Made by a program: the position numbers and the translations under genes. The notes beneath the pieces are model-generated. The model was not told where the DNA came from. It ran no database searches and worked only from the letters and a program-made list of their open reading frames with translations. From Acorus gramineus (taxonomy: Eukaryota; Streptophyta; Magnoliopsida; Acorales; Acoraceae): a stretch of 64,000 bases of DNA. Location of the stretch: the NCBI GenBank assembly GCA_030737835.1, contig JAUJYN010000017.1:1240001-1304000 (forward strand), written 5' to 3'. Every line of letters begins with the position of its first letter. Within the stretch, counting starts at the first letter, position 1. Below are positions 4,152-58,720 of the stretch, in pieces.

Positions 4152-4155
4152 AAAG

Positions 4156-4169
4156 TTGGTATCAGAGCC
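4156..4169 (+). other. Primer-binding site of E1 (initiator tRNA-Met)
   Basis: TTGGTATCAGAGCC begins four bases after the 5' LTR end. TGGTATCAGAGC is the standard plant LTR-retrotransposon PBS, complementary to the 3' end of initiator tRNA-Met. Confidence 0.95.
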
Positions 4170-4263
4170 TGGTCCTGTCAAAGCCAATTGTTTTTCTTAG
4201 AGATGAGTCCTAGGATTTCTATATGAGTATTCTGATTAGTGTCTGGTTTATTAGGTTGCTGAT

Positions 4264-4695
4264 ATGCCTCCTCGCAGAGGAATGCGTGGACGTGGTCCCT
4301 CTCGGCCTTTGGAGGTTCCCGGACCTACCAGAGGCGAGGATGCTACTGGAGAGTCCTCGGCTATGGGGCCAGGACTGGCGCAGGAGCCTCCTGCATGGGA
4401 GCGTGCTTACGCTCATATAGCAGATCTGGTGGAGACTCAGACGAGGGCACTGGAGGCCCAGACTAGGGCGTTAGCTGAGCAGGCACGAGAGATCCAGGAG
4501 CTGAGGGCGGCCTGTGAGGCAGTTCCACAGGTCCCCTTGGTGGCAGATCCACCGGTGGTGCCCGACGTACCCCCTGTCCCCGTGGTGATTCTAGTGGTGG
4601 GAGTTCAGGATCCCCTGGAGAGGGAGGTGGAGCTAGAGGCTGCAGCGCGAGTGCATCAGACATCCGGGTGCATGTCACCTCTCAGGCCACTCTGA
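4264..4695 (+). pseudogene. gag: gag N-terminal fragment of E1
   Basis: The reading frame opens with MPPRRGMRGRGPSRP, a start typical of plant chromovirus Gag, about 95 bp after the PBS. A heptad-like stretch around residues 55-80 (repeated TRALEAQ / REIQELR) suggests a coiled coil. A Pro/Val-rich linker follows. Only about 130 residues are genuine; the frame then runs across the junction of a palindrome (4661-4690) into antisense gag of another element and stops. The retroviral-type capsid domain, the CCHC knuckle and the protease are absent. An intact Gag protein cannot be made from this locus. Confidence 0.8.
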
Positions 4696-5087
4696 TGCAC
4701 TCGCGCTGCAGCCTCTAGCCCCACCTCCCTCTCCAGGGGATCCTGAACTCTCACCGCTGGAATCACCACGGGGACTGGGGGTACGTCTGGTACCACAGGC
4801 GGATCTGCCACCATGGGGACTTGTGGAACTGCATCACGGGCCGCCTTCAACTCCAGAATCTCTCGTGCCTGCTCAGCCAATACTCTAGTCTGGGCCTCCA
4901 GTGCCCTGGTCTTAGTCTCCACCAGATCTGCTATCCGCGTGAACGCACGCTCCCATGCAGGAGGCTCCTGCGCCGATCCTGGCCTCACAGCCGAGGACTC
5001 TCCAGTAGCATCCTCGCCTCCGGCAGGTCCGGAAACCTCCAAAGGTCGAGAGGGACCACGTCCGCGCCGTCCTCTACGAGGAGGCAT
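4691..5087 (-). pseudogene. gag: gag N-terminal fragment of the antisense partial element
   Basis: On the minus strand the frame starts at 5087 with MPPRRGRRGRGPSRP and runs collinear with the E1 gag start, with the same coiled-coil stretch and Pro/Val linker. It lies about 100 bp after its own PBS and LTR (L3). It is cut at the palindrome junction, as is the E1 gag, so nothing downstream of Gag residue ~130 survives. The few differences between the two gag pieces are mostly single substitutions. Confidence 0.8.
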
Positions 5088-5189
5088 ATCAGCAACCTAA
5101 GAAAATCAGACACTAGAATCCGAATACTCATATAGAAATCCTAGGACTCATCTCTACGAAAAAGAAGACAATTGGCTCTGACAGGACCA

Positions 5190-5203
5190 GGCTCTGATAC
5201 CAA
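5190..5203 (-). other. Primer-binding site of the antisense element
   Basis: GGCTCTGATACCAA on the plus strand is the reverse complement of the initiator tRNA-Met PBS. It is four bases from the L3 end, the same spacing as in E1. Confidence 0.94.
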
Positions 5204-5207
5204 CTTT

Positions 5208-8054: not shown

Positions 8055-10931
8055 CCCGAGGTTTTCCCCGATGATCTTCCGGGATTACCGCCGGATCGCG
8101 CGATCGAGTTTGAGATTAATCTAATTCCGGGGACCGAGCTGATTTCGAGAGCTCCGTACCAGATGGCCCCAGCAGAGCTGAAGGTGCTCAAGGAGCAGTT
8201 GGAGGAGTTGCTTGAGAAGGGCTTCGCACGTCCGAGTGTTTCTCCGTGGGGAGCCCCTGTTTTGTTCGTGCGGAAGAAGGACGGTTCGCTGCGGCTTTGT
8301 ATTGATTACAGGCAGCTGAACAAGCGGACCGTGAAGAACAAGTACCCCTTGCCACGGATTGATGATCTGTTTGACCAGCTCCAGGGAGCGCGTGTCTTTT
8401 CTAAGATCGATCTCCGTTCAGGCTACTATCAGCTGAAGATCTGGGAGTCAGATATTCTGAAGACGGCCTTTCGTACCCGTTATGGGCACTACGAGTTTCG
8501 AGTACTGCCATTTGGGTTGACGAATGCGCCGGCAGCCTTCATGGATCTGATGAACTGGGTGTTTCGGCCCTTCCTCGACTCCTTCGTAGTAGTCTTCATC
8601 GATGATATTCTGGTGTACTCGAGGAGTCTTGAGGAGCACGCTCACCATCTCCGCACTGTCTTGGAGACTTTGGCCCGACATCAGTTGTTCGCCAAGTTCA
8701 GTAAGTGCGAGTTTTGGTTGGAGCGTATGGCCTTTCTGGGCCACGTGATTTCCGGCGAGGGCATATCTGTGGACCCGGACAAGACGCTCGCCGTGTCGAA
8801 TTGGCGTCGACCGTCGAACCCCACAGAGATTCGAAGCTTCCTGGGTTTAGCGGGATATTATCAGAGGTTTGTTGAGGGTTTCTCGAAGATAGCTGTTCCT
8901 CTGACCCGCCTCACTCGGAAGGATGTCCGGTTCGAGTGGTCCCCAGCTTGCGGGGAGAGCTTCTTGGAGTTGAAGCGAAGGCTCACCTCAGCGCCAGGTC
9001 TTAGCATTCCGTCTGGGAGTGGTGGATTCGCAGTTTACTCTGATGCATCGCGGTTGGGTGTGGGTTGCGTCCTGATGCAGTACGGTAAGGTTGTGGCTTA
9101 CGCGTCGTGTCAGTTGAAGCCCCATGAGCAGAATTACCCCACCCACGACTTAGAGTTAGCAGCGATCATCTTTGCGCTGAAGATGTGGAGGCACTACCTC
9201 TATGGCGAGGAGTTCGAGCTCTTCACTGATCACAAGAGCTTGACTTATTTGCAGTCCCAGCCGGAGCTCAACATGCGTCAGAGATGTTGGGTCGAGTTCC
9301 TGAAGGACTATGATTGTGACATCGCTTACCATCCGGGTAAGGCGAATGTCATGGCCGATGCTCACAGCAAGCAGCCCTTGGGCATGGCCGCCCACCTGGC
9401 TCTATGTCGTTGGAGGCTTCTGGAGGAGGCCGCTTGTTGGATCAGCGTTCGAGAAACACCTGTGGGTGGCTTTTTGGCCAGGCTAGTGGTGCAGCCCGTT
9501 CTTCTCGACGAGATCTACACGGCTCAGGGGCAGGATCCTCACTTTCTAGTCCTCTGTGAAGGCGTCGCCCGGGGCGAGCGTTCGGAGTACCAGATTCGCG
9601 AGGACGGAATCCTGCGGTTTAGAGGTCGAGTATGCATTCCTGACGACGCAGAGCTGAAGTAGAAGATCTTGGACGAGGCCCATCGTTCGAGGTACACAGT
9701 GCATCCTGGTGGCACGAAGATGTATAGGGGCCTTCGTCGTGGCTACTGGTGGCGCGGGATGAAGACGGATATTGGCCGTTTTGTTGCCCGTTGCTTGGTA
9801 TGCCAGCAGGTGAAGTCGGAGCATCAGCGTCCTGCAGGGAAGCTGCAGTCCATTGAGATTCCTCAGTGGAAGTGGGAGCAGATCACCATGGACTTCGTTT
9901 CGGGCTTGCCGAGGTCACGTTCGGGTCGCGATGCCATCTGGGTAATCGTCGACCGACTGACTAAGTCCGCTCATTTCCTCCCCATCCGACTCACCGATTC
10001 TCTGGACACCCTGGCGCAGTTATTTGTCTCCGAGATTGTTCGTCTCCATGGCACTCCGGTCAGCATCATTTTAGATCGAGACGTGAGGTTTACTTTGAGG
10101 TTCTATCGTAGCCTCCAGCATGCCCTTGGTACGAACCTCCACTTCAGTACAGCGTTTCATCTGCAGACGGACGGCCAGTCGGAGAGGACGATTCAGACCC
10201 TAGAGGACATGCTGCGAGCTTGCGTTCTCGACTTTGGGGGCAGTTGGGAGAGGCATCTTCCGTTGGTGGAGTTTGCCTACAACAACAGCTACCACTCGAG
10301 TATCAGGATGGCTCCATATGAAGCGCTCTATGGCCGCAGCTGCAGGTCCCCCTTGTGTTGGGACGAGGTCGGAGAGCGCCAGTTGGAGGGACCAGAGATC
10401 ATCCACCAGACCTCAGAGATGGTCAAGACGATTTGCGAGCGTATCTGAGTCGCTCAGAGCCGTCAGAAGAGCTACGCCGATCGTCGTCGCCGTGAGCTCG
10501 CCTTCGAGGTTGGTGACCATGTCTTCCTGAAGGTGTCCCTGATGAAGGGCATCTTCCGTTTCGGTGTGCGGGGCAAGCTGAGTCCGCGTTTCATTGGGCC
10601 GTTCCTCATCCTCGAGTGGGTTGGAGAGGTGGCCTATCGCATAGCTCTGCCCCCACAGCTGGCTCAGGCCCATGACGTCTTCCATGTCTCGCAGCTGAGG
10701 CGTTACATCCACGATCCTGCTCACGTCATCCCGTTTGAGCCGCTCGTCTTTGAGTCGGACTTGTCATTCGTGGAGCAGCCGATCGAGATCCTGGACCGAC
10801 GCGAGAAGAGGCTCCGCACCAAGACCGTCCAGCTGGTTAAGGTGCGATGGCAGCACCGTTCTGGTGCCGAGGCCACTTGGGAGCGCGAGGACACCATGCG
10901 TGGCGCATATCCGCATCTTTTCCCTTCCTAG
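8055..10931 (+). pseudogene. pol: E1 pol: reverse transcriptase, RNase H, integrase, chromodomain
   Basis: One reading frame runs from the N-terminal RT sequence ([15 protein letters not shown], at 8055) to the stop at 10929-10931. RT shows [19 protein letters not shown] and the catalytic FIDD box at 8595-8606. RNase H follows (YSDAS near 9040; TDHKSL near 9226). Integrase has an HHCC-type finger (HPGGTKMY... CLVCQQVK, about 9700-9810) and acidic residues at 9891-9893, about 10074-10082 and 10182-10184. The C-terminus (ILDRREKRLRTK ... EATWERED, about 10785-10931) is the chromodomain of Tekay/Del-type chromoviruses, which in the family binds heterochromatin marks and directs integration. The frame is broken by TAG at 9660-9662 and TGA at 10446-10448, and everything before RT is missing, so it is not functional. 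Confidence 0.9.
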
Positions 10932-10979: not shown

Positions 10980-13622
10980 TGTTATATATGTGTCACTTTT
11001 AGCCTTCCGGGCACCTTTGGGACATTTCTGGCAGTTTTTCAACTTTTTCTTTTTTCGATCAGAACCGCTAAATTTTTTTACTTTTAGCTATCATCATGAG
11101 CTTGAGAACTCCGATTGAAAATCTAACTGCGCATTATGTGTCTTGGTGCCATTTCAAGCCACTCACGAAAATTTCATCGAATTCGGGTAACGTTCAGAAT
11201 GTCGTAGTTCTGAATCGTATCCGGGTTTTGACCAAGCGAAAAGTCATTGGGAGACTTGACCAAGTCAAAGAGGACTTTGACAAGTCAAATTTGACCATTG
11301 ACTTGGTCAATTTCTTTTGTTTTTTTGTGTGGATAGGTTGACCCAAAGTCAAAAGCACAAAAACCTAAATGCCCTAAGTGAGTGTGTGTGTGTGTGTGTG
11401 AGCATCACTTGGGCGTGCACTTCTTCTTCCTCTCCTCTTCATCTCTCTCTCACTCACTCACTCCCTCCTTTTGTGTTTTCCTTCCATTAGAGCTAGTAGA
11501 AGTGGTTGAAAAAGAAAACCCATTGAAGCAAAAAGCAAGGTAGGGTTCCGATCTACCTTTCCATGGTTTTGTTTTTGCTTTCCCTTTGTTTGCCTCCCTC
11601 TCATGGTCTCCCTTCTCCCCCCTGATTTCAGCCTTGTTAGGCCTTGTGAGTGGCTTGGTGGTGGAAGTTTTTGTGGTGGCATTTCGGTGCGCGAAGGGCA
11701 CCCGAGTTCCTCCCATTGTTCTTCCTCTCTTGGGTGAGTCCTTCTCCTCCCTATTTCTTGTTTAGATGCATGTTAGGGTGTGTATTTGGTTGTGCATGCT
11801 AGCATGGTTGTTGGGGGGGGGTGTGGGAGGGCTGTGGGAAGGCTGTGGAGGGGGTGGGAAGGGCTCAGGCGCGCGTGCAGGGTCATTCGCGTGCGTACGC
11901 GCGAGTCTGCGGGTGCAGGCGGGCGTTGGCGCGCGCAGACGGGTGCACTGGCGGGCGCGCGCACGTACGCGCAGACGCGCGGGCGTGCGCGCGGGGGTGC
12001 GCACGGGGTGCTGCGCAGAGGCGCAGTACGCGCGGGTAGACGCAGGGTTGGACGCGCGGGCAGAGGCGTGGCAGCAAGTCTGGGCGCGCGGGTAGGGGCG
12101 CAGCAGCGCGTCTGGGCGCGCGGGCTGGGGCGCGGCAGTGCGCCCGGGGCGCAGGGGCGCGTGCGTGCGTGCGCCTTCGTGCGTGCGCGTGCGGGTGGCC
12201 GTGCGTATGGCTGCCCGTGGGTTCGGGAGGGTGTCGGGGCACTCGGACTCGCGTGCGTACGCGCGTGCTCGCGTGCGTGCGGGCCCGTATGCATGCTTGT
12301 CTGAGTGTTGGGTATTTTTAGTGTATTTATTATTGTATTTGTGTAGTTTACTCACCTTATTGAATGCCTATGTCTTATAGATCTTGACGGACAGTCACGC
12401 AACGACCCGGGCTTCGGTGAGTGGGACAATCCAACCCAGTAGGGAGGCGTTCGATGCACGTAGGCGTGCATTGCCCTCCCCTGGGGCACCATAATAGCAT
12501 ATTAGCTTGTAATAAATGTAAAACTATGCATGCATGAATTATATGATGTATCCATGCCACCTTAGACTTTGTATGCTAGGGATATGCACCCTTATATCAT
12601 GTATAGCGGCCTATGCATGCTTAGACACCAAGCCCCGGACTATGCATGTTTCCCATCTAGTTTAATCTAATTAAATCAAAATGTGAGCATGCCTTAGAGA
12701 ATATTGTAACCTTGTGGTTATGATATATGTCTCCCCGCATCTTAGTTATGCGCCCTGGAGGAATTCTGGAGAATTCATGACATTAGTAGAGTTGCAATCG
12801 GTGTCGACGGATCCATGAGGATCGTATCCGTGTGAGTAGGCTGTCTTCTCCTTTTGGTTGGATCCGATGTAGGAACTCCCCGGCGATAGCTGACCTGACA
12901 GAGGGCTCCCGTCCGTAGGTACCTCTGATGTGTCGGACAGTACTGGTAGTTGGAGTGGACTAGGTCGAGGCTACGAGGGTGGGAGAGGCTACCGGGTGGA
13001 CCAGGGGTGGAGAGCGGTCTAGTATGCCCCAAGAGGCCCATGTCACCCCCCGAAAAGGGTGAGGGTGAGGGGGGAGGTGGGTTGGTGATGAAATGACCCA
13101 CTAGAATGTGTTGTTGCTCCCGTGTTAGGGGCTATAATTATTTGAGGTTAATATGAATTGTGATGCATGGGTTGTGCTATTCACTGAGCGTGTGGCTCAC
13201 CCCTCGCATATATTTTTCTCCAGTGATATCTGAGTCAGATTTGAAGGAGGAGCTCCCCAAGGCACATCAGCAGTAGTGGAGCAGCATCAGCAGTAGTCAC
13301 GTTCTGCGAGTGAGAGGCCATCAGCATCCCCGTTTGGATTGTATGTATTGTATTCCGTGCTTGGGCACGTACTTGTATTTGGATGTCGTTATATATATTG
13401 GCTCTCACAGGATAGTTGATTATGTATCGGGTCTGTAATATGTCTTTGAATTACAGACTCAGTCGTTTGAGCTTCCGCTATTTGTATATATTATGTCAGC
13501 CTCATTGTTGTCTGTGTTGTCATTTTTGATGTTGTTTAGAGTATGTTATTGATCTCTTGTATAGACTGTTGATATTATATATGTTTGCCACGTTTCGGGG
13601 ACGGCCGCCCTGGGGCGTGACA
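10980..13622 (+). mobile_element. L4: 3' LTR of E1 (subfamily A)
   Basis: It starts TGTTATATATGTGTCAC after the PPT and ends GGGGCGTGACA; length 2643 bp. It carries the mini-exon at 12381-12416 (acceptor TAG, donor GTGAGT), the CpG-dense segment at about 11865-12295 and the hairpin near 13185. The flank after it is TCAAG. Confidence 0.92.
11865..12295 (+). other. CpG-dense segment inside L4 (representative of all copies)
   Basis: This stretch is almost entirely alternating GCGCG/TGCG sequence, in sharp contrast to the AT-rich DNA on either side. It contains the stem-loop CTGCGC-AGAG-GCGCAG near 12008. The same segment occurs in every subfamily A LTR between the predicted exon 2 donor and the 36-nt mini-exon. 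It has no reading frame I regard as coding: the long Ala/Arg-rich ORFs on both strands are composition effects. Confidence 0.8.
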
Positions 13623-22562: not shown

Positions 22563-22894
22563 CTGTAGAAATGCTGCAAAGCCACCAAAGTTCTTGCCCC
22601 CGGCCCTCTTCACCTTCTTCGACAACTCCACGAAGAGGTGAGCCAGCATGGCCGCAGGCAAAAAGCCCCATCATCGCCAAGCCCCCATCAGCAACAAGAA
22701 GTGGGAGGAGATCTTGTCGGAGGCCGTTGAGAAGAGGACCCGGCCAAAGAAATAGAGGAAGAACGCCCTCAACTCCCTCCGAGCCCTCTGTGCGCATCCA
22801 GCGGCCTCCCTGGCCTCGATCATCAGCCTCCTCCTCTCAAAACTGGCCGCGGTCTCACTCTTCTGATGGCACATGAATGAATTGAGGCCGTACT
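22563..22894 (-). pseudogene. PMD core domain, middle
   Basis: The frame resumes at the L6 junction with YGLNSFMCHQKSE and continues as ARRELRAFFLYFFGRVLF, matching the PMD segment that usually reads RAFLLYxLGxxLF. A frame disruption near 22670 shifts the remainder (AAMLAHLFVELSKK ... FGGFAAFLQ) into another frame. The piece ends at a donor (CAG/GTATAG at 22562-22561). Confidence 0.72.
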
Positions 22895-23463
22895 TGTTAT
22901 ATATGTGTCACTTTTTGCCTTCTGGTCACCATTGGAGCATTCTGGCAGTTTTTTAACTTTTTCTTTTTTCGATCGGAACCGCTAAAATTTTGGACTTTTA
23001 GCTATCATCCTAATCTTGTCTGCATATTATGTGTTCTGGTGCCATTTCAAGCCACTCACTAAAATTTCATCGATTTCCGGTAACGTTTCAACATTTCGCA
23101 GTTTTGAATCGTATCCGGGTTTTGACCAAGCGAAAAGTCATTGGGAGACTTGACTTGGTCAAAGTTGACCCTTGACTTGGTCAATTGGTTTTGGTTTTTA
23201 GTGTGGTTGGGTTGACTAGGGTCAAATCTCACCTAAACCTAACTAAACCTAGCTTAACCTAATTTAATTCTAAGTGGTGAGTGTGTGAGTGTGTGTGGTG
23301 TGTGTGTGGGGACTTAAAGTCCACGACCACAACTAGTGCCCCTCCTATTCATCATCTTCTCCATTTCAAGCTCTCTCTCTCTCTCTCTCTCCCTCTCTTT
23401 AAATCCCCCATATGACCTAGTAGAGGTGGTTAAAATCAAAAACCCTAGAAGGAGAAAAGATAG

Positions 23464-23554
23464 GTGAGGACCCGATCTATCTTTCTATGGTCTTGGATCT
23501 CCATTTCCCCTTGGTTTTCCTCCTCTCTTACCTCCTTTTCTCCCCTGTTTTCAG
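23464..23554 (+). other. Predicted LTR intron 1 in L6
   Basis: A donor (AG/GTGAGG) and an acceptor after a pyrimidine tract (CCTGTTTTCAG) are 91 nt apart. The same pair is 91 nt apart in L2 (1030-1120) and 92 nt in L15 (56592-56683). Exon 2 (23555-23657) contains the conserved stretch TCGGTGCGCGAAGAGCACCC and ends at CTTGG/GTGAGC. Confidence 0.6.
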
Positions 23555-24399
23555 CCCTTCTTTGGCTGAGAAGAAGGCTTGGTGGTGGTGGTCTTGGAGG
23601 TGGCGAATCGGTGCGCGAAGAGCACCCGATTTCCTCCCCTTCCCTTCCTCTCCTTGGGTGAGCTTTCTTTCCTTCCTTTTCTTGTGTAGATGCTTGATTA
23701 GGATGTGTTTTTGGGTATGCATGGCATGCATGGTGGTTGGGGTGTTGGAGGGGGCTGTGGGGGTGGTGGAGTGGCTCGGGTGCGCGTGCTGGATCATCCC
23801 TGCACGTGCGCGCGGGCCTGTGCGCGCAGGCAGGGCAGGCATGCAGGTAGGGTAGGCGTGCAGGCAGGGCAGACACGCAGTCGGGGGCACTGGCGTGTGC
23901 GCGCGTACGCGCGGGCGTGCGTGCGGGTGCTGCGCAGGGGGCACAGTGAGCGCGGGGCGAGCGAGCGTGCGCGTGGAATGCGCTCGGGGGTACTGCGCTG
24001 GGGCGCAGTGCGTGCGGGTGTGCGCGCGAGGTGCTGCGCTGGGGCGCAGTGCGCGCGGGTGCACCCGGGGCTGGACGCGCGGTGCGCGTGGGCACGCGCG
24101 AGCGTGCGCGTGAGCATGTCCGGGCGTGCGGGTAGAGGCGCGGCAGCGCGCCTGGGCGCGCGGGCTAAGGTGCGCCCGGGGCGCGGGTGTGCGTGCGTGC
24201 GTGCGCACCCGTGCGTGCGTGTGCGGGTGGCCGTGCGCATGGCTGCCCGGGGGTGCGAGAGTGTGTCAGGGAACTTAGACTCGCGTGCGTATGGGCCGTA
24301 TGCATGCTTGTCCGAGTGTTGGGTATTTCTAGAGTATTTTGTATGTATTAATACGTATTTGTGTATTTTACTCACCATGTTGAATGCCCTGTCTTGCAG

Positions 24400-24435
24400 A
24401 TCTTGACGGACGGTCACGCGACGACCCGGGTATTG
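24400..24435 (+). other. Conserved 36-nt mini-exon in the LTR (reference copy, L6)
   Basis: The segment lies between TGTCTTGCAG and GTGAGTGG. It starts ATCTTGACGG and holds CGACCCGG near its end. Copies of exactly 36 nt: L1 364-399, L2 1803-1838, L3 6447-6482(-), L4 12381-12416, L5 17241-17276(-), L6 24400-24435, L8 31486-31521, L9 36785-36820, L10 39644-39679, L11 62885-62920(-), L13 49826-49861(-), L14 52273-52308, L15 57418-57453, L16 61312-61347(-). L7 has lost 7 nt at the acceptor (28206-28236). L11 has CAA instead of the CAG acceptor. Splicing itself is inferred. Confidence 0.65.
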
Positions 24436-25231
24436 GTGAGTGGGACAATCCAGCCCAGTAGGGAGGCGTTCTATACACTTAGGAGTGTATTGCCCTCCCC
24501 TAGGGCACCATAGTTGCATATTAACTTGTATTAAGTTTAACCATGCATGCATGATTATTATGTAGTATCCATGCCACCCTAGACCCTGTATGTTAGGGAT
24601 ACTTGCCCCTTATGATATGTATAAAGGCCCATGCATCCTGATACTATGTTTTCATGCTAGGAAAGCCTCAACCTATGCATGTGTCCCATTTAGTTTAATT
24701 TATTTAAATCAAATGCGAGTTATTGATAATTAGCATGCTTAGTGAATATTATAACCTTGTGGTTATAATATAGGCTTCCCCGCATCTTAGTTATGCGCCC
24801 TGGAGGAATTCTGAAGAATTCATGACATTTATAGAGTTGAGATCGGTGTCAGCGGATCCAAGTGGATCGTATCCGTGTGGGTAGGCTGTTTCTCTTCCCT
24901 TCGTTGGATCCGTGTAGGGACTCCTCAGCGTTAGACAGGCCGTCCTGACAGAGGGCTCCCATCAGTAGGCACCTCTTGATTTGGTTTCGGACTGTGCTGA
25001 ATGTGGGAGTAGACCAGGCGAGCTACGGTGTGGAGGAGAGGCTATCGGTGGACCAAGGGTGATCAATAGCCTAGTCAGTCCCAAAAGACCATGTCACCAG
25101 TTTGAGGGTGAGGGTGAGGGTGTAGTGGGTTGGCGATGAGCGACCCACTGGTTTGTGTAGTTGTTGCCACTTAGAGGCTATGAATGATTTGAGGTTAATA
25201 TGAATTGTGATGCATGGGTTGTGCTATTCAC

Positions 25232-25246
25232 TGAGCGTGTGGCTCA
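25232..25246 (+). promoter_or_regulatory. Conserved hairpin upstream of a 3' splice site (reference copy, L6)
   Basis: TGAGC-GTGTG-GCTCA forms a 5-bp stem with a 5-nt loop. It is preceded by a branch-point-like TTCAC (25227-25231) and followed by CCCCTCGCATAT, a T-rich tract and TTCTTCAG ending at 25269. The same arrangement occurs in all subfamily A and B LTRs and in L12 and the 45220-45697 fragment. Confidence 0.6.
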
Positions 25247-25673
25247 CCCCTCGCATATATTTTCTTCAGTGATATCCGAGTCGGATCTGAAGGAGGAGCT
25301 CCCCGAGGCACGTCAGGAGTAGCGGAGCAGCGCCACATTCTGCTTGTAGAGGCCATCAGCATCCCCCCCCTCCCTTTGATTGTATGTATTGTATTCCGTG
25401 CTTGGGCACATGTTTTGTATTATATTTGGATGTCGTTGTATATATTGGCTCTCACAGGACAGTTGATTATGTATCGAGTCTGTAATATGTCTTTGAATTA
25501 CAGATTCAGTCTTTTAGCTTCTGCTATTTGTGTATATATCATGTCAGCCTCATTGTTGTCTGTGTTGTTATTTTTGATGTTGTTTAGGGTATGTTATTGA
25601 CCTCCTGTATAGACTGCTGATATCATATATACCATTTGCCGCGTCCCGGGGACGGCCGCCCTGGGGCGTGACA

Positions 25674-26060
25674 GTACTGCCTCAAAAGCTGTCTGAGAGG
25701 GATCCGGTTCAACGTCCTCTCCCGCTCCACGTACTCCCAGTCACCAATCAACTCTCGGAAGAGTGCCTTGTAGTCTGGACTGGTAGCTGCTCTCACCGCC
25801 TCGCCCAAGGCCGGGAGGCCTGTGATCCGCTCCACATCCTCGAGCGTCAGCATCACTGCACCAGTGGGGAGGATGAAGGCGTCGCTCTCCGGATCCCATC
25901 TCTCTTCCAACGCCTCCAGATAAGGACGATGGACGTGGAAGGGCTCGATCAAAAAGAAGGAACGGAAGCCCGCTCCATCCACCAAGTCCCTCTCCCCCTG
26001 CCCCAAGGCAGAGTACCATCTCTTTGTCCAGTGCCACAAGGCTCGAATGCGATTCGGCCG
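25674..26060 (-). pseudogene. PMD core domain, N-terminal half
   Basis: After a TTATTTCAG acceptor the minus-strand frame contains WHWTKRWYSALGQGERDLVD, then FLIEPFHVHRPYLEALEERWDP, FILPTGAVMLTLEDVERITG and LP. The pattern RWDPE..FxLPxGxxxxTLEDVxxITGLP is the hallmark of the plant mobile domain (aminotransferase-like, PMD). The exon is cut by L6 at GTACT and resumes at 22894. No stop occurs in this part. Confidence 0.8.
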
Positions 26061-56004: not shown

Positions 56005-58720
56005 TGTTATATATGTGTCACTTTTAGCCTTCTGGTCACCATTGGAGCATTCTGACAGTTTTTCAACTTTTTCTTTTTTCGATCGGAACCGCTAAAATTT
56101 TAGACTTTTAGCCATCATCATGAGTTTGAGAACTCCGATTGAAAATCTAACTGCACATTATGTGTCCTGGTGCCATTTCAAGCCACTCACGAAAATTTCA
56201 TCGAATTCCGGTAACGTTTCAGAATTTCACAATTCTGAATCGTATCCGGGTTTTGACCAAGCGAAAAGTCATTGGGAGACTTGACCAAGTCAAAGATGAC
56301 TTTGACCAAGTCAAGTTTGACCATTGACTTGGTCAAATCTCTTTGTTTGTTTGTGTGGTTGAGTTGACCATAGTCAAAGCTCACCAAAAATACCCTAAGT
56401 GCCCTAATGTGAGTGTGTGAGTGGCTAAGTGTGTGTGTGTGAGCCTAAATGATGTCCACGCCCACCAATAGTTCTTCTTCTTTCTCTTCCTCTCTTTCTC
56501 ACACACAAACCTCATCTCTTCTTCCTTTGTTTCCTCCTTTTGAGCTAGTAGGAGTGGAAGAAAAGAAAAGCCATAGAAGGGAAAAAGGAAGGTGAGGGTT
56601 GGATCTATCTTCCTATGGTCTTGTTTTTGCTTTCCCCTTTGTTTACCTCCTCTCTTAGCTCCCTTTTCTCCTCTGTTTTTCAGCCTTGCTAGGGCTGAGA
56701 AGAGGCTTGGTGGTGGTGGCTTTGGTGGTGGTGATTCGGTGCGCGAAGGGCACCCGGTTTCATCCCTTTGTTCTTCCTCCCTTGGGTGAGTCCTTCTCCT
56801 CCCATTTCCTTGTTTAGATGCATGATTAGGGTGTGTATTTTGGTGTGCATGGTATGCATGTGTGATGGGGGTGTGGGAGGGCTGAGGAAGGAGGTGGGAA
56901 GGACTCGGGCGCGCGTGCGGGGTCATCCGCGCGCGTGCGCGCGAGTCTGCGCGCGCAGGCAGTGCAGGCGCGCGCAGTCGGGCGCGCTGGGGGCATGCGC
57001 GCGGTGTGCTGCGCGGGGAGCACAGTGCGCACGGTGCACAGGGGTGTGCGCGCGGGGGTGCGCGCGGGGTGCTACGCAGGGGCGCAGTACGCGCGGGTAG
57101 ATGCAAGGCTGGACGCGCGGTGCGCACGCAGCAGCGTGTCTGGGCGCGCGGGCAGGGGTGCGGCAGCGCGTCTGGGCACGCGGGCGGGGGCGCGGCAGTG
57201 CGCCCGGGGCGCGGGCGTGCGTGCGTGCGTGCGCACCCGTGCGTGTGCGTGCGGGTGGCCGTGCGCATGGCTGCCGTGGGTGCGGGAGGATGTCGGGGCA
57301 CTCGGACTCGCGTGCGTGCGGGCCCGTATGCATGCTTGTCTGAGTGTTGGATATTTTTAGCGTATTTCTTATGTATTTGTGTAATTACTCACCATTTTGA
57401 TTACCCATGTCTTGCAGATCTTGACGGGCGGTCACGCGACGACCCGGGTGTTGGTGAGTGGGACAATCCAACCCAGTAGGGAGGCGTTCGATGCACGTAG
57501 GCGTGCATTGCCCTCCCCTGGGGCACCATAGTTGCATATTAGCTAGTATTAAATGTAAACTATGCTTTGCATGAATATTATGTTGTATCCATGCCACCTA
57601 GACTTGCATGCTAGGGATATGCACCCGTATACTGATTAATATGATGTATCCATGCCTCCTTAGATTTGTATGCTAGGGATATGCACCTTTACATCATATA
57701 TAGAGGCCTATGCATGCCTAGACACTTTGCCCCGATTTGTGCATGTTCCCACCTAGTTTAATTTAATTAAATCAAATGTGAGCATGCCTTAGAGAATATT
57801 ATAACCTCCATGTTATAATATATGTCTCCCTGCATCTTAGCTATGCGCCCTGGAGGAATTCTTGTGAATTCATGACATTATTTTAGCGTTACCATCGGTG
57901 TCGACGGATCCATGAGGATCATATCCGCGTGAGTAGGCTGTCTTCTCCTTATGGTTGGGATCCGAGGTAGGAACTCCCCGGCGTTAGCTGGCCTGACAGA
58001 GGGCTACCATCTGTAGGTGCCTCCGATGCGTTCGGACTGTGCTGATCGTGGGAGTATACCAGGTGGAGGCTACGAGGGTGGGAGAGGCTACCCGGTGGGG
58101 CCAGGGGTGGAAAGCGGTCTAGTATGCCCCAAGAGGCCCATGTCACCCCTCGGAAAGGGTGAGGGTGAGGGGAGGGAAAGTGGGTTGGCGATGAGACGAC
58201 CCACTAGAATGTGTAGTTGCTTTCGTGTTAGGGGCTATGATTATTTGAAGTTAATATGAATTGTGATGCATGGGTTGTGCTATTCACTGAGCGTGTGGCT
58301 CACCCCTCGCATATATTTTTCTCCAGTGATATCTGAGTCGGATCTGAAGGAGGAGCTCCCCGAGGCACATCAGCAGTAGTGGAGCAGCGTCACGTTCTGC
58401 GAGTGAGAGGCCATCAGCATCCCCCTTTGATTGTATGTATTGTATTCCGTGCTTGGGCACATGTTTGTATTGTATTTGGATGTCGTTGTATATATTGGTT
58501 CTCACAGGACATTTGATTATGTATCGGGTCTGTAATATGTCTTAGAATTACAGACTCAGTCTTTTAGCTTCTGCTATTTGTATATATTATGTCAGCCACC
58601 TTTCTGTCTGTGTTGTCATTTTTGATGTTGTATAGAGTATTTTATTGATCTCCTGTATAGACAGCTGATATCATATATACCATTGCCGCATCTCGGGGAC
58701 GGCCGCCCTGGGGCGTGACA
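56005..58720 (+). mobile_element. L15: solo LTR, subfamily A (TSD CAAAC)
   Basis: It starts TGTTATATATGTGTCAC and ends GGGGCGTGACA; length 2716 bp; TSD CAAAC is perfect (56000-56004 and 58721-58725). Predicted intron 1 is 56592-56683 and the mini-exon 57418-57453. It carries the ~55-bp duplication seen in L8. Confidence 0.94.

What the first reader, a model, noticed from the sequence alone, without database searches (positions are those of the whole stretch)
24400..24435. A 36-nt mini-exon with intact splice sites kept in nearly every LTR copy
Fourteen of the fifteen LTR copies that cover this point have exactly 36 nt between an acceptor (CAG or TAG) and the donor GTGAGT; the fifteenth (L7) has a 7-nt deletion. 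The length is constant across subfamilies A and B although the bases differ (for example L5 and L16 against L6). Flanking the mini-exon are a 91-92-nt intron 1 with its own consensus sites, a conserved exon 2 containing GGTGCGCGAA, and a later acceptor near the LTR end. This looks like a multi-exon spliced leader encoded wholly in an LTR, which I do not know to be described for Tekay/Del elements. The join of exon 2 to the mini-exon gives an early stop in most copies, so the role is more likely in the RNA (export, splicing-linked expression, silencing escape) than in a peptide.
Basis: partly seen in the sequence, partly recalled or inferred. Interest (0 to 1): 0.86.

Follow-up and report, generated by a model that had tools for sequence, protein, structure and literature searches.

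The report
Multi-intron leader inside a retrotransposon LTR
The repeated ends of a plant jumping gene carry the splice signals of a several-exon leader whose exons hold very few start codons, which suggests that the element makes its proteins from a spliced message and keeps the unspliced RNA for copying itself, although no RNA has yet been examined.

Summary
The 36-nt block is real and recurs in the genome. The window has 15 copies, 14 with 36-nt spacing, 13 of them with an intact acceptor. Of 58 fetched genome copies 56 span it: 52 have 36 nt, 4 have 35; AG and GT are intact in all 56. The length is not special: 13% of 36-nt LTR windows are as constant, and diverged copies have 35-39 nt. What is special is the splice grammar: donor 2 fits GTRAG in 50 of 53, donor 3 is GTGAGT in 53/53, a CTNAY branch-point motif precedes acceptor 2 in 52/53. 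ATG is the most depleted of 64 trinucleotides in the exons (obs/exp 0.10; complement CAT 0.96) but ranks 57 in introns 2-3 (1.57). Copies with intron 1 sites have ATGs there (31/31); 16 of 20 without have none. An acceptor 9 nt before the gag ATG, behind the primer-binding site, is present in 30 of 31 five-prime ends. Best reading: a noncoding spliced leader that clears upstream AUGs from gag-pol mRNA, while unspliced RNA is the genome. No RNA data were available; the one answered junction search found nothing.

The parts
22895..25673 (+). Solo LTR (L6), TGTTATATATG...GGGGCGTGACA, 2,779 nt
22890..22894 (+). Target-site duplication GTACT (second copy 25674-25678)
23335..23463 (+). Exon 1; left edge inferred only from where AUG depletion begins (L6 has one ATG at 23412 in this stretch)
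   Evidence: AUG profile; donor AG|GTGAGG; ATG seen
23464..23554 (+). Intron 1 (91 nt), in L6-like copies, perhaps with shifted sites in family C
23555..23657 (+). Exon 2, 103 nt here, 87-117 nt in the 34 L6-like rows that have it, contains GGTGCGCGAA, AUG-poor
23658..24399 (+). Intron 2, donor GTGAGC, acceptor TGTCTTGCAG, length variable
24371..24375 (+). Branch-point-like CTCAC of intron 2 (CTCAC/CTTAC/CTAAC in 52 of 53 sequences)
24400..24435 (+). Mini-exon (36 nt)
24436..25269 (+). Intron 3, donor GTGAGT (53 of 53), acceptor TTTTCTTCAG
25243..25247 (+). Branch-point-like CTCAC of intron 3 (51 of 53)
25270..25381 (+). Exon 4, AUG-poor (3 ATGs in its first 90 nt over 53 sequences; none in 16 of 18 diverged copies over the whole exon)
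25382..25387 (+). Putative donor 4, GTATGT (GTAYGT in 51 of 53); could instead be a polyadenylation element
4157..4168 (+). Primer-binding site TGGTATCAGAGC after another copy's 5' LTR
4243..4254 (+). Acceptor of putative intron 4 (branch-point-like CTGAT 4232-4236)
4264..4266 (+). gag start codon (reading begins MPPRRG)

Best explanation
The LTR of this plant Ty3/Gypsy chromovirus family (Tekay/Del type by its chromodomain-like polyprotein end, a label from recall) encodes a noncoding cis-spliced leader: exon 1, exon 2, a mini-exon of about 36 nt and exon 4, probably joined to an acceptor 9 nt before the gag AUG. Splicing removes nearly all upstream AUGs (in L6, 50 ATGs in introns 1-3 plus the LTR end, 0 in the exons counted from 23430), so that the gag AUG becomes the first or nearly the first AUG. 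If intron 4 is real it contains the primer-binding site, so fully spliced mRNA cannot be a template for reverse transcription; the unspliced RNA is the genome, which explains why the introns stay in the LTRs. Shown: splice-site, branch-point and AUG patterns across copies. Inferred: splicing itself, the transcription start, intron 4, and the division between translated and copied RNA.
For: Six splice dinucleotides kept in 30-34 of 34 complete copies. Donor 2 shows splice-like freedom: +3 is A (33) or G (19), +4 A and +5 G in the 52 of 53 with a base there. The branch-point motif before acceptor 2 varies at its degenerate position (CTCAC 42, CTTAC 7, CTAAC 3 of 53). The T-rich tract up to acceptor 3 varies 13-17 nt while CAG/TAG stays (63 scored of 73 tried). 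Donors 2 and 3 and acceptor 3 are kept in all 18 diverged copies, acceptor 2 in 17, although these match L6 at roughly 60-75% in the 5' part of the LTR. ATG ranks 1 of 64 for depletion in exons, its complement CAT is neutral, and ATG is enriched in introns 2-3 (51 sequences, two family-C rows left out). Random placement of four intervals: p = 0.00075 in the 35 L6-like rows, p = 0.0068 with six representatives under 75% identity, family C included. Intron 1 sites and ATGs in that stretch go together. Pre-gag AG in 30 of 31, with 1-3 ATGs between primer-binding site and acceptor in the 29 that the pattern could score.
Against: No RNA evidence. The mini-exon/exon-4 junction was not found in the genome at up to 3 mismatches, and none of 68 sequences has a precise intron deletion (but the anchor of sample 1 lies in intron 3, so copies without intron 3 could not enter it). 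In sample 1 and elsewhere single sites are lost: donor 2 in L040 and L041, acceptor 2 in L075 and W_29799r. Family C (L067, L079) has ATGs in mini-exon and exon 4, lacks donor 4 and the pre-gag branch-point motif. In the mini-exon ATG is hardly depleted (15 against 20.6). TAA and TAC are also rare in the exons (0.21, 0.23). Putative donor 4 is preceded by ATT, not AG, and may be a polyadenylation element. The intron-1 comparison rests on about two ATG sites and few lineages. The mini-exon shows an excess of synonymous change in one frame, which a noncoding leader does not predict.
Confidence: 0.72

Rival explanations
1. The mini-exon and exon 4 are coding: a short LTR-encoded tail (D-LDGRSRDDPGI-V-ISESDLKEELPEAHQQ-stop) made from a spliced RNA, for example as an alternative C-terminus of another product.
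For: Among 64 mini-exons that were picked for being 36 nt long, the frame is open in 63, and in 41 nearest-neighbour pairs its synonymous share is 0.488 against about 0.24-0.30 simulated (0 of 400 simulations reach it under each of four mutation settings); the exon 4 frame ends at the same stop in 51 of 63 copies scored; the phases fit.
Against: Mini-exon lengths 35, 37 and 39 occur; exon 4 loses the frame in L068 and L082; exon 2 varies 87-117 nt, 18 of the 34 rows that have it carry an in-phase stop, and 1 of 34 has an ATG. Exon 4 alone shows little synonymous excess (22:47 against 18:52 and 18:54).
Confidence: 0.1
2. [quoted passage not shown] splicing is secondary.
For: Foamy viruses use a splice donor in the LTR this way (PMC3694450, abstract and outline seen). 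Donors here lie upstream of the LTR end, and donor 3 is invariant in 53/53.
Against: Acceptors and branch points are kept about as strictly as donors, and AUG depletion follows exon borders. These need splicing, not only U1 binding.
Confidence: 0.08
3. Introns near the promoter mainly raise transcription or export (intron-mediated enhancement), with AUG clearing a by-product.
For: Intron 1 carries GATCT-type motifs (seen; recalled as enhancement motifs, not tested). Leader introns commonly raise expression in plants (recalled).
Against: Most copies of the other subfamilies lack intron 1 and 16 of them have no ATG there; enhancement alone does not predict AUG loss.
Confidence: 0.07
4. The blocks are conserved DNA elements (promoter, enhancer) or chance, not splice sites.
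For: The mini-exon is no more conserved than its surroundings, and 13% of windows are as constant in length.
Against: Strand-specific ATG depletion and enrichment on opposite sides of the predicted sites, and splice-like degeneracy.
Confidence: 0.03

Closest known systems
Ogre elements (pea, Medicago) with a spliced intron between gag-pro and RT-RH-INT
   Same: Plant Ty3/Gypsy element with partial splicing so that spliced and unspliced RNAs coexist (passages of PMC6317226 and PMC12786077)
   Different: Ogre's intron lies between the two parts of the coding region; here the introns lie in the LTR/leader, upstream of gag
EVADE (Arabidopsis), BARE1 (barley), sunflower Tyran/Varan: spliced short-gag RNAs
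   Same: Splicing as an expression strategy of plant LTR retrotransposons (passages)
   Different: The isoforms in the passages I saw change the coding part (short or truncated gag); several introns inside the LTR are not mentioned there
Foamy virus major splice donor in the LTR
   Same: Donor located inside the LTR (abstract)
   Different: Here acceptors and exons are inside the LTR too, and splicing would lead to the gag AUG
Plant pararetroviruses CaMV and RTBV with long leaders full of short upstream ORFs
   Same: Long leader with several upstream ORFs, the Met-tRNA primer site and a splice donor (passages of PMC5902531)
   Different: They pass the leader by ribosome shunt; here the leader appears to be spliced away

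Membership tests
Tekay/Del chromovirus | Ty3/Gypsy polyprotein with RT, RNase H and integrase | tested here: met
   Pfam hits RVT_1, RT_RNaseH, RT_RNaseH_2 and Integrase_H2C2 in ORFs 8163-9662 and 9669-10448, upstream of the LTR at 10980
Tekay/Del chromovirus | C-terminal chromodomain | tested here: inconclusive
   A frame ending ...EATWEREDTMRGAYPHLFPS shortly before the LTR looks like it, but the likeness is recalled; no profile was run on that stretch
Tekay/Del chromovirus | Place in an RT tree with named Tekay elements | not tested
   No named reference set was at hand
Intron-containing plant LTR retrotransposons (Ogre, EVADE type) | Intron between or within gag and pol coding parts | tested here: not met
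   The predicted introns lie in the LTR and upstream of the gag ATG; introns further downstream were not looked for
Intron-containing plant LTR retrotransposons (Ogre, EVADE type) | Spliced and unspliced RNAs observed | not testable with these tools
   No transcript data
Foamy-virus type LTR splice donor | Functional donor in the LTR upstream of the poly(A) signal | tested here: inconclusive
   Donors conserved, but the poly(A) site was not mapped
Spliced-leader trans-splicing | Short donor RNA joined in trans, donor without its own acceptor | tested here: not met
   The internal exons have their own acceptor and donor in cis

The most novel reading that the evidence does not exclude
The primer-binding site lies inside the last leader intron, so that this family translates gag-pol only from a spliced RNA that cannot be reverse transcribed and reserves unspliced RNA as genome: two separate RNA fates set by splicing inside the LTR, ancient within the lineage and perhaps general for such elements.
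Probability: 0.38. Interest if true: 0.8.

Novelty: new variant of a known kind. Interest (0 to 1): 0.62.

Why it matters
Plant LTR retrotransposons are described as generally lacking introns, with a few exceptions (review PMC12786077, passages). A very abundant family (5,929 matches of a 22-nt LTR anchor in 399 Mb) with several introns inside its LTR would show how such elements separate translated RNA from genomic RNA. It would also make its many LTR copies, solo ones included, possible sources of spliced first exons for neighbouring genes, and give annotators a concrete, testable splice map.

Tried and rejected
Length constancy as the main signal: rejected. Coding mini-exon: not excluded but weak across families. 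Unspliced ORF through acceptor 3: rejected, because the T-rich tract differs by 1-4 nt between copies. Retrocopies with joined exons: one junction, written for L6-like copies, searched and not found; precise intron loss in 68 sequences: none, with the limit that the anchor of sample 1 lies in intron 3, so a copy without intron 3 could not be in it. Relatives in the viral-contig collection by the RT protein: 4 stretches matched, none confirmed. My recollection that centromeric (CRM) elements have leader splicing was not supported by the two papers I checked (no occurrence of 'splic' or 'intron' in either main text) nor by passages of a third on back-spliced CRM1 RNA (PMC7010299). Literature searches aimed at LTR introns or leader splicing in such elements gave listings, several of them capped (for example 20 of 910), in which no title or abstract start describes several introns inside a plant LTR; most listed papers were not opened, and most subscription journals are not in the library. 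A regular expression for acceptor 3 was wrongly written (2 of 53); one search replaces it: 50 of 53 by pattern, plus L036 and L040 intact by eye; L029 is deleted there. In one search, 73 sequences were tried, 63 scored, L029 had no acceptor and 9 did not align well enough to score. In one search one of 35 rows (L010) lacks exon 2 and was counted as open by the script; I give counts of 34.

Full report
What was checked. The block at 24400-24435 lies between CAG and GTGAGT as stated. L6 is a solo LTR, 22895-25673, flanked by GTACT on both sides. In the window 15 copies cover the point: 14 with the 36-nt spacing, 13 of them with an AG acceptor; one has CAA and one a 7-nt deletion.

Genome samples. 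A 22-nt LTR anchor about 55 nt downstream of the block, in intron 3, has 5,929 matches at up to 3 mismatches. The list shows only 100, all perfect matches; I fetched 58 of these 100, so sample 1 leans to well-kept copies and cannot hold copies without intron 3. Of the 58, 56 span the block: 52 have 36 nt and 4 have 35; AG and GT are intact in all 56. Sample 2 is independent of the block and reaches diverged subfamilies. Two of the 20 (L072, interrupted; L074, lacking a match over 23861-25055) were left out of the alignment. In the 18 aligned the block is 36 nt in 14, and 35, 37, 37 and 39 nt in the others; L075 has lost the AG.

Is the length special? In 34 complete L6-like LTRs, 31 have 36 nt, but 12.9% of all 2,698 36-nt windows do at least as well. 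The block's mean pairwise identity is 0.855, against 0.851 for intron 3 and 0.899 for the LTR end. So length and sequence conservation alone do not single it out.

What does single out the structure. In 34 complete copies the six dinucleotides, from donor 1 to acceptor 3, are kept in 30, 32, 31, 33, 34 and 33 copies. Over 53 sequences (35 L6-like rows, 18 diverged) donor 2 fits GTRAG in 50; of the other three one is a gap and two (L040, L041) have changed GT. Its +3 base is A in 33 and G in 19, and +4 and +5 do not change in the 52 with a base there. Donor 3 is GTGAGT in 53; acceptor 2 is YAG before AT in 50 (the others: GAG, a deletion, CAA); a CTNAY motif precedes acceptor 2 in 52 (CTCAC 42, CTTAC 7, CTAAC 3) and acceptor 3 in 51. 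Acceptor 3 is present in 52 of 53 (50 by pattern, 2 by eye), follows a T-rich tract that changes length (13-17 nt with the AG, 63 scored of 73 tried), and is kept in subfamilies whose tract and exon differ. This is the freedom expected of splice signals.

AUG content. In the exons (23341-23463, exon 2, mini-exon, first 90 nt of exon 4; 51 sequences, family C left out) ATG is the most depleted of the 64 trinucleotides, obs/exp 0.10, while its reverse complement CAT is 0.96. In introns 2 and 3 ATG stands at rank 57, obs/exp 1.57. TAA (0.21) and TAC (0.23) come next among the depleted ones, so simple base composition is not a full control. With permutations of ATG as control, family C included: exon 2 has 2 against 38.4, exon 4 has 3 against 97.2, the mini-exon 15 against 20.6, intron 2 574 against 326, intron 3 1,658 against 987; TGA and TAG are not depleted in exon 2 or exon 4. 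So the depletion is not that of an open reading frame. Placing four intervals at random gives p = 0.00075 in the L6-like set, where exon 4 was taken up to the GTATGT that itself contains an ATG, and p = 0.0068 with six representatives below 75% identity, family C included and exon 4 cut at 90 nt. In the mini-exon depletion is weak.

Intron 1 as a natural comparison. Of 53 sequences 51 could be scored. 31 have GT (or GC) and AG at the aligned intron 1 borders; all 31 have ATG in that stretch. Of the 20 that lack one or both, 4 have ATG: L025 and L039 (L6-like copies that lost a site) and L067 and L079 (family C, whose acceptor seems shifted). The other 16 have no ATG; two of them, L071 and L086, still have the AG, and shifted sites were not excluded. 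The copies are related and only about two ATG positions are involved, so this is a concordance, not a strong test.

Link to gag. Behind the 5' LTR come the primer-binding site, one to three ATGs, in 25 of 29 a CTNAY motif, then TTAG followed by GKTGCTGAY and the gag ATG (ATA in L069). The pattern scored 29 of 31 five-prime ends (9 of the 58 of sample 1 that reach this far, 20 of sample 2, 2 in the window); L025 is cut by the end of the locus but shows TTAG, and L074 has TTGG, so AG is present in 30 of 31. Together with GTAYGT at the end of the AUG-poor part of exon 4 in 51 of 53 this suggests a fourth intron containing the primer-binding site. Donor 4 is the weakest point: it is preceded by ATT in L6, it is missing in L067 and L079, and it could be a polyadenylation element.

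Mechanism. Introns in an LTR survive only if the RNA that is copied is unspliced. If the spliced RNA loses the primer-binding site it cannot be copied at all, which would explain why no precisely intronless LTR turned up (0 of 68 sequences; mini-exon/exon 4 junction 0 hits). The same negative result is also what no splicing would give, so it does not decide. I take as most likely that splicing serves translation: L6 has 50 ATGs in introns 1-3 and the LTR end, and none in the exons from 23430; one ATG at 23412 lies in the AUG-poor stretch before that, and whether it is transcribed is unknown.

Coding alternative. Among 64 mini-exons chosen for their 36-nt length the frame is open in 63, and it has more synonymous changes than simulated (0.488 against 0.24-0.30); the exon 4 frame ends at one stop in 51 of 63. 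Against it stand the lengths 35, 37 and 39, the broken frame in L068 and L082, the variable exon 2 and the near absence of AUG upstream. I keep it at 0.1.

Known context. A 2025 review says plant LTR retrotransposons generally lack introns apart from notable exceptions such as Ogre and EVADE, and cites BARE1 for a spliced short gag (PMC12786077, passages); sunflower elements also splice (PMC7730604, passages). Foamy viruses place a donor in the LTR (PMC3694450, abstract and outline). I found no description of several introns inside a plant LTR in the searches named under Tried and rejected, which cover open-licence papers only and were mostly seen as listings.

Noticed in passing
window 4152-5207: Two LTRs face each other head to head with a primer-binding site and the start of gag on each side, so that both strands of this 1-kb stretch read the gag start; perhaps a self-integration or inverted rearrangement.
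   Followed up: partly
window about 436-2987: One LTR is nested inside another just downstream of that copy's mini-exon, with duplication CGTTC at both sides.
   Followed up: partly
window 56005-58720: Another apparent solo LTR with 5-bp duplication CAAAC.
   Followed up: no
window 4190-4235 and the stretch after the LTR end in the loci: Between primer-binding site and gag many copies keep ATGAGTCCTAGGATTTCTATATGA, a possible 7-codon upstream frame, preceded by a second acceptor-like T-rich tract of variable length ending in TAG.
   Followed up: no
window 23440-23452: Exon 1 holds AAACCCTAG, like the telo-box of plant housekeeping gene leaders (recalled), shortly before the intron 1 donor.
   Followed up: no
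window 23700-24290: Intron 2 is rich in variable GCGCGTGCG-type repeats and ranges from 319 to 912 nt in the L6-like rows.
   Followed up: no
L068, L082: These two copies lack 23 nt of exon 4 close to the acceptor and have GTACGT for GTATGT at the putative donor 4, a change that keeps a possible donor.
   Followed up: partly
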